Assembly: GCF_035474595.1 (NCBI RefSeq)
Contig: NZ_DATIND010000070.1
Location: 1 to 64,000 of the forward strand
Source of the DNA: Longimicrobium sp.
GTDB lineage: Bacteria > Gemmatimonadota > Gemmatimonadetes > Longimicrobiales > Longimicrobiaceae
DNA: 64,000 nucleotides
Reading direction: 5' to 3'
In this document: positions 1,398 to 47,318 of the stretch, one piece after another
How positions within the stretch are numbered: the first letter of the stretch is position 1
How the letters are laid out: every line of letters begins with the position of its first letter
Translations under genes and position numbers: made by a program
The notes under the pieces: generated by a model
What the model saw: only the letters and a program-made list of their open reading frames with translations
The model's database searches: none
What the model was told of the DNA's origin: nothing

Positions 1398-2963
1398 ATG
1401 AACACGATCCTGATCGCCGTCGTCGTGGCCGTGGTGGCCGCGATTGCCGGCTTTGCCGCGGGCCGCGCGGCGGTCGAGGCGCGCCTGAAGAAGGCGCGCG
1501 CCTCGGCCGAAGACGAGGCCACGCGCATCCGCTCGGGGGCGCAGGAAGAGGCCGACCGCCTGCGCAAGGCCGAGATCCTGAAGGGCCGCGAGGAGGCCAT
1601 CCGCGCCCGCGAGGAGTGGGAGCGCGAGGAAAGCCGCCGCCGCGACGACGTGGAGCGCGTGGAGCGCCGCCTGCAGGAGCGCGAGGAGTCGCTGGACCGC
1701 AAGTTCCACCTGCTGGACGAAAAGCAGGACCAGGTGGAGCAGCGCGGCCAGCAGCTGGTGCGCCGCGAGAAGCAGATCGAGGCGCGCGACGCCGAGCTGG
1801 GGCAGCGCATCGCCGAGGTGCAGCACCGGCTGGAGTCGCTCGCGGGGCTCAGCGCCGACGAGGCGAGGCGCCAGCTCATCCACGACATGGAAGAGGCGGC
1901 GCGCGCCGAGGCCGGGCAGCGCATCCGCGAGATCAAGGAGGAGGCGCGCCGCGACGCCGACCGCGAGGCCAAGAAGATCATCTCCCTGGCCATCCAGCGC
2001 ATCGCCGCCGACCACACCGCCGAGACCACCGTCTCCGTCGTCGCCCTCCCGTCGGACGAGATGAAGGGGCGCATCATCGGCCGCGAGGGGCGGAACATCC
2101 GCGCCTTCGAGCAGGCCACGGGGATCGACGTCATCATCGACGACACCCCCGAGGCGGTGGTGCTCTCCGGCTTCGACCCCATCCGCCGCGAGACGGCGCG
2201 CCTGGCGCTGGAGAAGCTGGTGGCCGACGGCCGCATCCACCCCGGGCGCATCGACGAGGTGGTGGCCAAGAGCCGCAAGGAGGTGGAGAACTCCATGCGC
2301 GAGGCCGCCGAGCAGATCCTCTACGAGCTCGGCATCCACGGGGTGCACCCCGAGGTGGTGAAGGTGCTGGGGCGGCTGAAGTTCCGCACCAGCTACGGCC
2401 AGAACCAGCTGATGCACAGCAAGGAGGTGGCGATCCTGGCCGGGAACATGGCGGGCGAGATGGGCTTCGACGCCACGCTGGCCAAGCGCATGGGGCTGCT
2501 GCACGACGTGGGGAAGGGGATGACCCACGAGCACGAGGGGACGCACGTGGAGCTGGGGTGGAACCTGGCCAAGAAGTTCGGCGAGCCGGCCCAGGTGCTG
2601 AACGCCATCAAGGCGCACCACGACGAGGAGCCGCACCTCTTCCCCGAGAGCTTCCTGGTGACCGCCGCCGACGCGATCAGCGGCAGCCGCCCGGGCGCGC
2701 GGCGCGAGATGTTCGAGACGTACGTGCGCCGGCTGGAGAAGCTGGAGGAGATCGCCACCAGCTTCCCCGGCGTGGAGCGCTGCTTCGCCATCCAGGCCGG
2801 CCGCGAGCTGCGGATGATGGTGATCCCCGAGCAGATCAGCGACGAGGACATGGCCCGCCTGAGCGACGAGACGGCGCGCCGCATCGAGGGCGAGCTGCAG
2901 TATCCGGGGCAGATCAAGGTGGTGGTGATCCGCGAGACCCGCGCGGTGGACTTCGCGCGGTAA
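1398..2963 (+). CDS. rny: Ribonuclease Y
   Basis: Membrane-anchored endoribonuclease initiating mRNA decay. Residues ~3-22 form one transmembrane helix (TILIAVVVAVVAAIAGFAAG). Residues ~25-200 are a long charged coiled coil (EAR/EEAD/REEW repeats). A KH RNA-binding domain follows (KGRIIGREGRNIRAFE, ~221-236), then an HD phosphohydrolase domain with LLHDVGKG (~370) and a C-terminal KVVVIRETRAVDFAR tail. The length, 521 aa, is normal for RNase Y. The ATG fits the membrane anchor. The neighbouring ymdB gene repeats the rny-ymdB linkage known from Firmicutes. Confidence 0.97.
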   Translation: MNTILIAVVVAVVAAIAGFAAGRAAVEARLKKARASAEDEATRIRSGAQEEADRLRKAEILKGREEAIRAREEWEREESRRRDDVERVERRLQEREESLDRKFHLLDEKQDQVEQRGQQLVRREKQIEARDAELGQRIAEVQHRLESLAGLSADEARRQLIHDMEEAARAEAGQRIREIKEEARRDADREAKKIISLAIQRIAADHTAETTVSVVALPSDEMKGRIIGREGRNIRAFEQATGIDVIIDDTPEAVVLSGFDPIRRETARLALEKLVADGRIHPGRIDEVVAKSRKEVENSMREAAEQILYELGIHGVHPEVVKVLGRLKFRTSYGQNQLMHSKEVAILAGNMAGEMGFDATLAKRMGLLHDVGKGMTHEHEGTHVELGWNLAKKFGEPAQVLNAIKAHHDEEPHLFPESFLVTAADAISGSRPGARREMFETYVRRLEKLEEIATSFPGVERCFAIQAGRELRMMVIPEQISDEDMARLSDETARRIEGELQYPGQIKVVVIRETRAVDFAR

Positions 2964-2993
2964 CCGCGGCCCGGCATCATCCCCGCAGGAAGA

Positions 2994-3036
2994 CGAACCC
3001 TCTCCCCGCATCGGCGCTGCGATCGGAGAGGGTTCG
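2994..3036 (+). terminator. Hairpin after rny
   Basis: CGAACCCTCTCC and GGAGAGGGTTCG form a 12-bp stem around a loop that itself contains CGCATCG/CGATCG. It lies 30 bp after the rny stop. There is no T-run, so its role as a terminator is tentative. Confidence 0.5.
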
Positions 3037-3076
3037 TGCGTGCGGGGGATCGTCTCCGCTGTCTGGTGCGGGAAGG

Positions 3077-3761: not shown

Positions 3762-3916
3762 TTTCGAGGGGCGGCGGGATTGCGGGGGAGAGGCTATATT
3801 GTGCGGCAGAAAGCAGAACGGGGCGGCGCGTGCGTCGCCCTTTCGCGTCCACGGCGGCGGAGGGCGATGAACGGGAGCGGGGGTGCGCGGGCGGTGCGGG
3901 GGCGGGAGGTGCGCCC

Positions 3917-4756
3917 GTGAGGGTGCTGTTCATCGCCGACGTCATCGGCAGCCCGGGGCGGCGCGTGCTGGGCCAGCTGGTGCGGCTGGTGCGCGCCGAC
4001 ACCCGCGCCGACGCCGTGATCGTGAACGGCGAGAACAGCGCGGGCGGGTTCGGCATCACCCCCGAGATCGTGAAGGAGATCTTCGAGCTGGGCGTGGCCG
4101 TGATCACCACCGGCAACCATGTCTGGGACAAGAAGGAGATCCTTCCCATGCTGGACAGCGAGCCGCGCCTGCTGCGCCCGGCCAACTATCCCTCGGGCCC
4201 GCCGCCGTCCGGCAACCCCGGCCACGGCTCGGTGGTGGTGCAGGTGGGCGACGCGCGGCTGGCGGTGCTCAACCTGCAGGGGCGCACCTTCATGGCCCCC
4301 ATCGACGACCCCTTTCGCGAGGCCGACGCGCTGCTGAAGGAGCTGAAGTCGCTGGAGCCGCCGCCCGACGCGATCGTGGTGGACTTCCACGCCGAGGCCA
4401 CCAGCGAGAAGCAGGCGTTCGCGCGCTACCTGGACGGGCGGGTGGCCGCGGTCGTCGGCACGCACACGCACGTGCAGACGGCCGACGAGCGGCGCCTGCC
4501 CAAGGGGACGGCGTACATCACCGACCTGGGGATGACGGGCGGCCTGGGCGGGATCATCGGGATGAAGTGGGAGATCTCGCTGGAGCGCCAGCTCACGCAG
4601 ACGCGCGGCGAGCGGATGCAGCCGGCGGACGAGGATCTCCATCTCCAGGGCGTGGTGGTGGACATCGACGTGAAGACGGGGCTTTCGAGGTCGATCGAGC
4701 GCGTTTCGGTGGGGATGGAGCGCGTGCTCACGGAAAAGTTCGGGAAGAAGCTCTGA
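3917..4756 (+). CDS. ymdB: YmdB-family metallophosphoesterase (2',3'-cyclic-nucleotide phosphodiesterase-like)
   Basis: Cytoplasmic calcineurin-like phosphoesterase of the TIGR00282/YmdB type, which hydrolyses cyclic phosphodiesters. Metal-ligand motifs are visible: VLFIADVIGSPGR at the N-terminus, VNGENSAGG (~37), TTGNHVWDK (~63), DFHAEATSEK (~155) and GTHTHVQTADE (~180). Length is 279 aa. GTG at 3917 is chosen over the longer open frame because the family begins exactly at the (M/V)RVLFIAD strand and GGGAGG lies 8 bp upstream. It is followed two bases later by folD. Proximity to rny is a known linkage. Confidence 0.93.
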   Translation: MRVLFIADVIGSPGRRVLGQLVRLVRADTRADAVIVNGENSAGGFGITPEIVKEIFELGVAVITTGNHVWDKKEILPMLDSEPRLLRPANYPSGPPPSGNPGHGSVVVQVGDARLAVLNLQGRTFMAPIDDPFREADALLKELKSLEPPPDAIVVDFHAEATSEKQAFARYLDGRVAAVVGTHTHVQTADERRLPKGTAYITDLGMTGGLGGIIGMKWEISLERQLTQTRGERMQPADEDLHLQGVVVDIDVKTGLSRSIERVSVGMERVLTEKFGKKL

Positions 4757-45286: not shown

Positions 45287-45853
45287 TCAGCCGCGGGCGC
45301 GGCGGGACTGCACGGCCTCCCAGACGTGGGCGAGGCCGTGCCGTTCGGCGAGCGACCGGATCCGGGCCTCGTCTATTTCCTGGAGTGGCGAGTCCAGCAT
45401 TCCCGAGATGTCGCGAAGGTGCTTTTCCGTCCAGGCGAAGGAGTAGTACTTCATCTTCATCAGGATCAGCTCTTCCGGGGGAGAGACCATCACCATGCCC
45501 CCGAAGGCGGTTTCCATCCTGCGCGCATTGTCCACCTGCAGGCGAGAGATCGCGTCGCCGGCGATGAAGATGTCGGCCTTCAGCCCGGTTTCGTTGTCGA
45601 TGATGTTGAACTGGCTGCCGGTGCGGATGGCCTCCAGCGCCGCGTGCTCGTCCCGGTAGTACCGCGGATGCGGAAAGCGCGCGAGGAGCCGCGGAACGTC
45701 CTGCGGCCGCAGGTGCACGACGACGTCGATATCGGTGGTCAGCCGCAGCTCGCCATACATCATCGCCGCCAGCGACCCGCCGACCGCGTACGGGATCCCG
45801 AGCTCCTCGCACGCGCGCGCGACGATGTCGAGCAGATCAAACGCGCTTTTCAA
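45287..45853 (-). CDS. Nucleotidyltransferase-fold protein (AbiEii/MNT-like)
   Basis: 188 aa. GGSLAAMMYGELRLTTDIDV, then VV (~25-46), carries the GG-S and D-x-D signature of minimal nucleotidyltransferases, followed by KADIFIAGDAISR and EELILMKMKYYSFAWTEKHL. Such proteins act as toxins or modifiers in paired systems. The partner ORF 45837-46097 overlaps its start by 17 bp. Role in a toxin-antitoxin-like module is inferred from pairing. Confidence 0.8.
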   Translation of the reverse strand: MKSAFDLLDIVARACEELGIPYAVGGSLAAMMYGELRLTTDIDVVVHLRPQDVPRLLARFPHPRYYRDEHAALEAIRTGSQFNIIDNETGLKADIFIAGDAISRLQVDNARRMETAFGGMVMVSPPEELILMKMKYYSFAWTEKHLRDISGMLDSPLQEIDEARIRSLAERHGLAHVWEAVQSRRARG

Positions 45854-46097
45854 GAAACCTCCGGGCGACCTCGCGGTTGATCTCCTCCTCGGTCCACTCC
45901 GGATGCCGCGATCTCAGCCGCAGCGCGAGCGTCTCCCGAGCCACCATGGCGATCTCGGCCGCCGCGCGAAGGCGCTGCGCCGAACTCCAGCGGCTCCAGA
46001 CGGCGAGCTGCCGGCGGTCGGCGAGCTCCACCACGATCTCGCGCGTCTCCCCGTCGATCGTGTGAAAGAACCCGGTGCGGTTGTCGTCGCTGTCCAT
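45837..46097 (-). CDS. Partner protein of the nucleotidyltransferase, 86 aa
   Basis: Small basic helical protein (MDSDDNRTGFFHTIDGETRE; SSAQRLRAAAEIAMVARETL; RSRHPEWTEEEINREVARRF). The HPEWTEEEI-REVARR tail recurs in small proteins encoded beside nucleotidyltransferases. It overlaps the downstream gene by 17 bp. Possibly an antitoxin or modified partner; I cannot assign a family. Confidence 0.65.
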   Translation of the reverse strand: MDSDDNRTGFFHTIDGETREIVVELADRRQLAVWSRWSSAQRLRAAAEIAMVARETLALRLRSRHPEWTEEEINREVARRFLEKRV

Positions 46098-46270: not shown

Positions 46271-46927
46271 ATGCCGCGAATCAGCATCATGGCCGACGAG
46301 AGCGGGAATTTCGATTTCTCGCGCAGGAGCGGCGCGTCGCGCTACTTCATCCTCACCACCGTCACCTGTACGGACTTCACCGTGGGCGACGAGCTGCTGG
46401 CGTTGCGCCGCGACATGGTGTGGCGCGGCCTGGCGGTGGAATCGGAGTTCCACGCCACCGACGACTCGCTCGAGGTGCGGACCGAAGTGTTCGATCTGCT
46501 CCGCCGCCACGACTTCCGCGTCGACGCCACGATCCTGGAGAAGGCGAAGGCGCAGCCGCAGACCCGCGCCTCGGAAGAGACGTTCTACCGATACGCGTGG
46601 GACTATCACCTGAAGCACCTCGCGCCGAAGGTCGTGTAGGAGGATGACGAGCTGCTGGTGGTGGGCGCGTCGCTCGGGACCAGGAAGAAGCGGAGACTGA
46701 TGCACGACGCCGTGAAGGACGTGGTGAGGCAGGTGACGCCCACGGTCCACTACCACACCGCGTCGTGGAGCGCGCAGAGCGAGCCGTGCCTGCAGGTCGC
46801 GGACTACTGCTGCTGGGCGATCGCGCGGAAATGGGAGCGGGGCGACTGCTCCGCGTACGACCTTGTCCGCGACAAGGTCCAGTCGGAGTTCGATGTGTGG
46901 AGGCGGGGTACGATGCTGTACTACTGA
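46271..46927 (+). pseudogene. DUF3800-domain protein interrupted by an in-frame amber codon
   Basis: MPRISIMADESGNFDFSRRS has the DESG motif of DUF3800 (RNase H-like fold). The frame stops at TAG 46637-46639 after LKHLAPKVV and continues in the same frame: EDDELLVVGASLGTRKKRRL, QVADYCCWAIARKWERGDCS, ending GTMLYY at 46927. QVADY is the conserved C-terminal DUF3800 motif. Joined, the product is ~218 aa, full family length. Either a nonsense mutation, readthrough, or two separate chains (restart GTG 46658). Confidence 0.78.
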
Positions 46928-46943
46928 GCGGGGCAAAAAAATC

Positions 46944-46999
46944 GCGGCTGACTAGCCAGGTAAACCTGGCAGAGCCCGGGGGCTCTTGTCGTCAGCCGC
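46944..46999. ncRNA. Three-way-junction RNA candidate downstream of DUF3800
   Basis: P1: GCGGCTGAC (46944-46952) with GTCAGCCGC (46991-46999). P2: GCCAGG-taaa-CCTGGC (46955-46970). P3: AGAGCC-cggg-GGCTCT (46971-46986). All three stems are perfect, with A-rich sequence just before (CAAAAAAATC). It begins 17 bp after the DUF3800 stop. I recall Rfam families of small structured RNAs found beside DUF3800 genes (DUF3800-I and following); placement and size fit, identity untested. Strand is not decidable from symmetry; plus is likely from the adjacent gene. Confidence 0.65.
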
Positions 47000-47073
47000 A
47001 TATACCAACTTGTGTTGCAAGAATAATACAGACATTCCGTTCCTTCGTCAAGCCAGCACGAATTGTCGCTCGC

Positions 47074-47118
47074 GACGAAACGCCGCGTTCCCGGCTTTGG
47101 GGACGCGGCGTCTTCGTC
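47074..47118 (-). terminator. Terminator of the lpd-small ORF unit
   Basis: GACGAAACGCCGCGTTCCC pairs with GGGGACGCGGCGTCTTCGTC around GGCTTT, 21 bp past the minus-strand stop at 47139. Confidence 0.75.
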
Positions 47119-47138: not shown

Positions 47139-47318
47139 TCAGGAGCTGCCGAGCTGCTCCATGAGCGCGTTCAGGCGGTGCTGCTTTCCGTGCAGCGTCT
47201 CGCGCAGGTCGTAGTTGTCGGTGTGCGCGATCTCGCTGTGGAGCTCGCTCAGGTAGTGGGCGATGACCTCGCGGAGGAGGCCCGCGTCTTCCTGGGTCAG
47301 ATGGAGACTGGTTTCCAT
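47139..47318 (-). CDS. Small conserved hypothetical protein, 59 aa
   Basis: METSLHLTQEDAGLLREVIA, then HYLSELHSEIAHTDNYDLRE and a C-terminal helix LHGKQHRLNALMEQLGSS. A two-helix acidic protein of a type often seen in Acidobacteria and related phyla; function unknown. It follows lpd on the same strand and has its own terminator. Confidence 0.7.
   Translation of the reverse strand: METSLHLTQEDAGLLREVIAHYLSELHSEIAHTDNYDLRETLHGKQHRLNALMEQLGSS

What the first reader, a model, noticed from the sequence alone, without database searches (positions are those of the whole stretch)
46271..46999. Compact three-way-junction RNA directly downstream of a DUF3800 gene
Within 56 bp three perfect stems (9, 6 and 6 bp) close a three-way junction, starting 17 bp after a DUF3800 gene. 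Comparative work has described multiple structured RNA motifs linked to DUF3800 genes, with unknown function; an RNase H-fold protein next to a small RNA suggests a processing or toxin-antitoxin-like pair. Position and size fit, sequence identity unknown.
Basis: partly seen in the sequence, partly recalled or inferred. Interest (0 to 1): 0.75.

Follow-up and report, generated by a model that had tools for sequence, protein, structure and literature searches.

The report
Small RNA partnered with DUF3800 nuclease
Next to a gene for an unstudied RNase-H-like enzyme (DUF3800) lies a tiny, independently transcribed three-armed RNA, read from the opposite strand; the same gene-plus-RNA pair recurs in at least a dozen bacterial phyla, and the RNA may act as a brake on the enzyme.

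Summary
The three-way junction is real and conserved, but on the strand opposite to the one implied. In the window the RNA is on the minus strand, about 47016 to 46935. It has its own sigma70-type promoter (TTGACG-17-TATTAT), and the closing stem P1 plus U7 forms a terminator. It converges on DUF3800 gene 46271-46927 (+), which carries an in-frame TAG.

The RNA recurs beside the relatives of this DUF3800 subfamily: 71 of 77 evaluable loci from at least 14 phylum-level groups and viral contigs. Twenty of 22 base pairs covary, and G-U versus A-C counts (122:12) fix the strand. Orientation relative to the gene varies, so it is neither a 3'UTR nor only a terminator. No Rfam family matches, including its DUF3800 motifs; DUF3800-VI is a different, smaller three-way junction placed upstream of its gene.

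The protein is modelled with an RNase HII-like fold (Z about 12). The RNA has almost no single-stranded segment that could serve as a guide. Two genomes keep the RNA without the gene, at 97% identity while adjoining spacer is 59-65% identical. This favours a protein-binding RNA, most likely antitoxin-like as for AbiF/RCd22. Function is untested. It is a new family of a known kind (DUF3800-associated RNAs).

The parts
46271..46927 (+). DUF3800 (PF12686) gene, 218 codons, interrupted by an in-frame TAG; predicted RNase HII-like nuclease
   Evidence: (30.1 bits, cut-off 21), (64-68% identical intact homologues; fold of homologue)
46637..46639 (+). in-frame TAG, codon 123, in a poorly conserved position of the protein; gene broken or assembly error
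47046..47051 (-). -35 element TTGACG of the RNA promoter
   Evidence: score 18.4; genomic control mean 3.2, 95th percentile 9.2
47023..47028 (-). -10 element TATTAT, 17-nt spacer
46935..47016 (-). predicted sRNA transcript, about 82 nt (start inferred from -10, end from U-run)
   Evidence: inference
46991..46999 (-). P1, 5' strand GCGGCUGAC
46987..46990 (-). junction GACA, nearly invariant (G96, A100, C65, A100 %)
46971..46986 (-). P2 hairpin AGAGCC-CCCG-GGCUCU, conserved in sequence
46955..46970 (-). P3 hairpin GCCAGG-UUUA-CCUGGC, sequence free, structure kept
46953..46954 (-). junction UA, invariant
46944..46952 (-). P1, 3' strand GUCAGCCGC
46935..46941 (-). U7 run after P1: P1 doubles as intrinsic terminator

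Best explanation
The locus is a two-component module: an RNase HII-fold DUF3800 nuclease and its dedicated, independently transcribed sRNA of about 65-90 nt, folded into a three-way junction. Shown by sequence: the RNA family, its strand, promoter, terminator, conserved core and linkage to this DUF3800 subfamily. Inferred: the conserved P2 hairpin and the GACA/UA junction are the protein-binding face, and P1 and P3 are scaffold. Inferred, most likely mechanism: the constitutively made sRNA binds DUF3800 and holds its nuclease in check, like an RNA antitoxin (as RCd22 does for AbiF). Loss or titration of the RNA, for example during phage takeover, would free the nuclease. In the window the nuclease gene appears broken, so here the RNA may be a retained antitoxin. 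My confidence that the RNA is a genuine cognate sRNA of DUF3800 is about 0.95; the figure given in this field is for the full antitoxin-like mechanism.
For: Covariation: 20 of 22 pairs with double changes, 94% of cells paired, 401 double-change cells against 125 +/- 11 shuffled and at most 109 when slid; also on a structure-blind alignment of 11 close RNAs. Strand: G-U/U-G 122 against A-C/C-A 12. Promoter on the RNA strand: mean score 11.0 against 3.2 control, 70% above the 95th percentile. U-run of 4 or more after P1: 54% sense, 14% antisense, 3% control. Linkage: 71 of 77 evaluable DUF3800 loci; RNA-first search of 298 genomes gives 16 RNAs, 13 beside a DUF3800 gene or remnant; in 26 genomes all 28 RNAs fall at the known loci. 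Against a guide role: the -10 element usually ends 8-11 nt before the modelled RNA, leaving a very short 5' tail. For antitoxin-like: autonomous promoter; no conserved third gene; tandem RNA copies beside one gene; module in viral contigs, tRNA genes close upstream in 7 of 60 loci and some defence-type neighbours; RNA kept where the gene is broken or lost (G000, G004, G007, G015, G003, G006); orphan RNA 97% identical between G003 and G006 against 59-65% in the adjoining spacer, no DUF3800 hit in either genome. Fold: RNase HII, Foldseek E 4e-7, VIA Z 12. Precedent: PMC12373285.
Against: No expression, binding or toxicity data. Two intact relatives (L095, L137) show no detectable RNA. Known type III systems have the antitoxin first in one operon, tandem repeats and ToxN-type toxins (PMC5086642); none applies here. 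RNA persistence without the gene could also mean a function independent of DUF3800. Broken genes in metagenome-derived assemblies may be errors. Conserved D9, E10 and D178 suggest catalysis, but activity and substrate are unknown.
Confidence: 0.45

Rival explanations
1. The RNA is an obligate working subunit: it activates or targets the DUF3800 nuclease in a ribonucleoprotein, as omega RNAs and crRNAs do for RuvC-type nucleases.
For: Tight linkage and conserved protein-facing core; RNase H fold with Argonaute PIWI and Cas9 chains also among the VIA rows; DUF3800 proteins are CRISPR accessories in some V-A2 and VI-F loci (PMC12669027, PMC10910872).
Against: No unpaired variable segment that could be a guide: the transcript runs almost from P1 to P1. 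RNA is maintained where the protein is absent, and two intact proteins lack a detectable RNA.
Confidence: 0.27
2. The RNA regulates DUF3800 expression in cis (antisense, transcription collision or bidirectional terminator) and does not act on the protein.
For: Mostly convergent, median 15 nt between stop and modelled RNA; a fraction have U-runs on both sides (antisense 14% with 4 or more).
Against: Orientation is not fixed: same-strand downstream in G002 and G014, same-strand upstream in L096, L108, L128, L139; P2 and junctions are conserved in sequence; retained without the gene.
Confidence: 0.13
3. The RNA is a substrate or an independent sRNA whose link to DUF3800 reflects joint mobility only.
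For: Orphan RNAs under constraint and one beside a tyrosine-recombinase-like ORF.
Against: Linkage spans deep protein divergence (about 30% identity) and at least 14 phylum-level groups, without other constant neighbours.
Confidence: 0.12
4. A chance palindrome or plain terminator pair.
For: P1 plus U-run is terminator-like in the window.
Against: Covariation, conserved junction and promoter.
Confidence: 0.02

Closest known systems
DUF3800-associated RNA motifs of Rfam (DUF3800-VI RF02915 examined; DUF3800-I RF02969 and DUF3800-IX RF02968 named in PMC11701678)
   Same: Compact structured RNA beside DUF3800 genes; DUF3800-VI is also a three-way junction.
   Different: No Rfam family matches this RNA at gathering score or E<=10. 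DUF3800-VI is 52 nt, with different junctions and sequence, and is same-strand upstream in the examples where a gene was located (typed Cis-reg). This RNA is an autonomous unit, usually convergent and downstream.
AbiF / RCd22 (abiF RNA motif RF03085)
   Same: Small structured RNA with own promoter and terminator next to a toxic protein gene; the RNA neutralises the protein by direct binding (PMC12373285).
   Different: AbiF is an Abi_2/Cas13-ancestor-type protein; RCd22 lies upstream and is co-transcribed by read-through; carries two abiF motifs, not this junction.
Type III toxin-antitoxin (ToxIN, CptIN, TenpIN)
   Same: Works-like candidate: nuclease plus small structured RNA in a two-part module.
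   Different: Bicistronic order with RNA first, tandem repeats and pseudoknots (PMC5086642) are absent here, and the protein fold is RNase HII-like.
RNase HII / RNase H2
   Same: Fold (Z about 12) and an N-terminal Asp-Glu pair on strand 1 (DESGN here; DE-x-G-R-G in RNase HII, from general knowledge).
   Different: 6-15% identity in the structural alignments; invariant H61, R70, K91, Q175 and the DYC motif are particular to this subfamily.

Membership tests
DUF3800 protein family (PF12686) | profile match above curated cut-off | tested here: met
   30.1 bits for the window gene against 21; homologues 36-49 bits
Rfam DUF3800 RNA families | covariance-model match of the RNA | tested here: not met
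   none in window, none in 19 loci at gathering or 13 loci at E<=10
DUF3800-associated structured RNAs as a broad kind | conserved structured RNA recurrently adjacent to DUF3800 | tested here: met
Type III toxin-antitoxin | RNA of tandem repeats upstream of toxin in one operon with intervening terminator | tested here: not met
   convergent or separately promoted, single unit in most loci
Type III toxin-antitoxin | RNA neutralises a toxic nuclease by direct binding | not testable with these tools
   needs expression and binding assays
RNase HII | type 2 RNase H fold | tested here: met
   (pLDDT 92.8); model of a homologue with 67% identity
RNase HII | full catalytic DEDD set and ribonucleotide-recognition G-R-G motif | tested here: inconclusive
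   D9, E10 over 90% and D178 invariant; motif is DESGN/DEAGN, not GRG; D85 varies; active-site superposition not available
RNA-guided nuclease (omega/crRNA-like) | variable unpaired guide segment in the RNA | tested here: not met
   inferred transcript is almost all P1-P2-P3; short 5' tail; transcript ends are predicted, not measured

The most novel reading that the evidence does not exclude
DUF3800 nucleases of RNase HII fold, each with a private three-way-junction sRNA, form a widespread class of protein-RNA toxin-antitoxin or abortive-infection modules, outside the ToxIN/CptIN/TenpIN families, in which some genomes keep only the RNA as immunity.
Probability: 0.4. Interest if true: 0.82.

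Novelty: new member of a known kind. Interest (0 to 1): 0.62.

Why it matters
RNAs linked to DUF3800 genes have been catalogued without a function. This family has clear predicted ends, a fixed strand, a promoter, a conserved protein-facing core and intact small partner genes, so the open question of what DUF3800 and its RNAs do becomes directly testable with one gene and one 80-nt RNA. The RNase HII-like fold and the constrained orphan RNAs lead to specific, opposing predictions (inhibitor or cofactor).

Tried and rejected
Plus-strand reading as a 3'UTR element: rejected by G-U counts, promoters and variable orientation. Known Rfam family: none. Genome-wide repeat (REP-like): only one copy in the own genome. 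Conserved third gene: none found. Plasmid and phage records: only distant DUF3800 relatives, 24-31% identity. Solved-structure sequence search: no credible match. The paper that first described the DUF3800 motifs is not held, so its figures were not compared. PADLOC gives a weak DUF3800_VII match of unclear meaning.

Full report
Observation. The window holds, at 46944-46999, three perfect stems of 9, 6 and 6 bp closing a three-way junction, starting 17 nt after the stop of a DUF3800 gene. The fold is far more stable than shuffles (z -5.1). The gene (46271-46927) passes the PF12686 cut-off but carries an in-frame TAG at codon 123, where close homologues are open.

Strand. Because the element is nearly palindromic it folds on both strands. 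Four lines put the transcript on the minus strand. First, aligned relatives show 122 G-U/U-G cells but 12 A-C/C-A cells when read on that strand; the alignment was fitted to a model of this strand, which may inflate the contrast somewhat. Second, a sigma70-type promoter precedes P1 there: TTGACG-17-TATTAT at 47051-47023 in the window; mean score 11.0 over 76 RNAs against 3.2 for random stretches of the same loci. Third, a U-run follows P1: U7 in the window; 54% of RNAs against 14% on the other strand and 3% of controls. Fourth, in G002 and G014 the motif is inverted relative to the gene, and a promoter-like sequence moves with the RNA. The inferred RNA is about 82 nt, 47016 to 46935, and P1 doubles as its terminator.

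Conservation. A DNA search of related genomes found the junction directly beside close homologues of this gene. A covariance model from 11 of these RNAs searched over 82 DUF3800 loci fetched by protein similarity found the RNA in most of them. After a filters-off pass with a second model, 66 loci have it convergent and downstream (64 counted plus L124 and L135, whose modelled RNA starts at the stop codon), 4 just upstream on the same strand, 1 at 1.7 kb, 6 not at all, and 5 end at a contig edge. Hosts span at least 14 phylum-level groups by record title, plus viral contigs.

Structure. In 79 RNAs 94.2% of cells pair and 20 of 22 pairs show double changes; shuffles and slid versions fall far short. 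That alignment was fitted to the model, so the structure-blind alignment of 11 sequences was counted too: 12 pairs with double changes, shuffles 5.5 +/- 1.5. The core GA(C)A between P1 and P2 and UA between P3 and P1 is nearly invariant, the P2 hairpin AGAGCCC..GGGCUCU is conserved in sequence, and P1 and P3 are free in sequence. This is the pattern expected of a protein-binding RNA.

Independence test. Starting from the RNA, 298 genomes of the phylum gave 16 RNAs. Twelve lie beside a DUF3800 gene including the window and one beside a C-terminal remnant; three (G006, G187, G096) have no recognisable gene. In 26 genomes that hold the loci, all 28 RNAs are at the known loci. The window genome has a single copy.

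RNA without protein. G003, G004 and G006 share similar sequence around the RNA, after a HAD-type hydrolase ORF. In G004 the DUF3800 gene is split between two contigs; in G003 and G006 none is found. Between G003 and G006 the RNA is 97% identical while the adjoining spacer on one side is 59-65% and on the other 67-87%: the RNA appears to be under selection without a local DUF3800 (G003 is 86% and G006 96% complete). Broken or partial genes with intact RNA also occur in G000 (TAG), G015 (frameshift) and G007 (fragments). Assembly error cannot be excluded for single cases.

Protein. The homologue from G011 (67% identical) was modelled at pLDDT 92.8. Best solved matches are type 2 RNases H: 1eke, Foldseek E 4e-7, Z 12.0 over 170 residues. 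Asp9-Glu10 on the first strand and Asp178 in the last long helix are kept. PMC10910872 reports, from an AlphaFold model, an RNase H fold with a catalytic rearrangement for DUF3800; the present result narrows the nearest solved relatives of this subfamily to RNase HII/HIII.

Context. Neighbours vary and include a few Fic, McrBC, type I restriction and transposase or recombinase genes. Seven of 60 loci have a tRNA gene within about 450 nt upstream, in the gene's direction, as expected of integrating elements; I did not run a matched control. The protein tree mixes phyla, with Pseudomonadota, Chloroflexota and Acidobacteriota in several places, compatible with transfer but not proof of it.

Mechanism. 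Shown by sequence analysis: a dedicated autonomous sRNA and its linkage. Inferred: binding to DUF3800. Inferred with less certainty: inhibition of the nuclease, as for RCd22 and AbiF (PMC12373285). A guide role is disfavoured by the lack of unpaired variable sequence; a pure cis role by variable orientation and by persistence of the RNA without the gene.

Comparison. Rfam DUF3800-VI, met in a relative, is a different 52-nt three-way junction, same-strand upstream of its gene where a gene could be located. The present RNA therefore belongs to the known kind 'DUF3800-associated structured RNA' but to no Rfam family. The original description of those motifs could not be read here, so identity with a motif outside Rfam is not excluded.

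Noticed in passing
window 45287-46097 (-): Divergently upstream of DUF3800 lies a likely toxin-antitoxin pair: Rv0078B-related antitoxin (PF18993) and a nucleotidyltransferase-like ORF (DUF2204, just under cut-off).
   Followed up: partly
window 46637-46639: In-frame TAG in DUF3800, followed by GGAGG and a GTG-started ORF for the C-terminal part (46658-46927).
   Followed up: partly
window 47079-47110: Hairpin ACGCCGCG...CGCGGCGT between minus-strand ORFs ending at 47139 and the sRNA promoter; possibly a terminator insulating the sRNA.
   Followed up: no
L092, L093, L109, L130: Two RNA copies in tandem beside a single DUF3800 gene.
   Followed up: partly
L133: Two DUF3800 ORFs (1522-1890, partial; 3902-4615), each followed by its own RNA (1939-2005, 4645-4711).
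   Followed up: no
L157 1501-1565: Orphan RNA close to a tyrosine-recombinase-like ORF (1690-3063, -).
   Followed up: no
L003 898-950 and L199-L210: Rfam DUF3800-VI RNAs in the same phylum, on the same strand upstream of other DUF3800 genes where these could be located.
   Followed up: partly
L067 / L070 (G004): DUF3800 split at one point onto two contig ends, suggesting an inserted repeat element in the gene while the RNA stays intact.
   Followed up: partly
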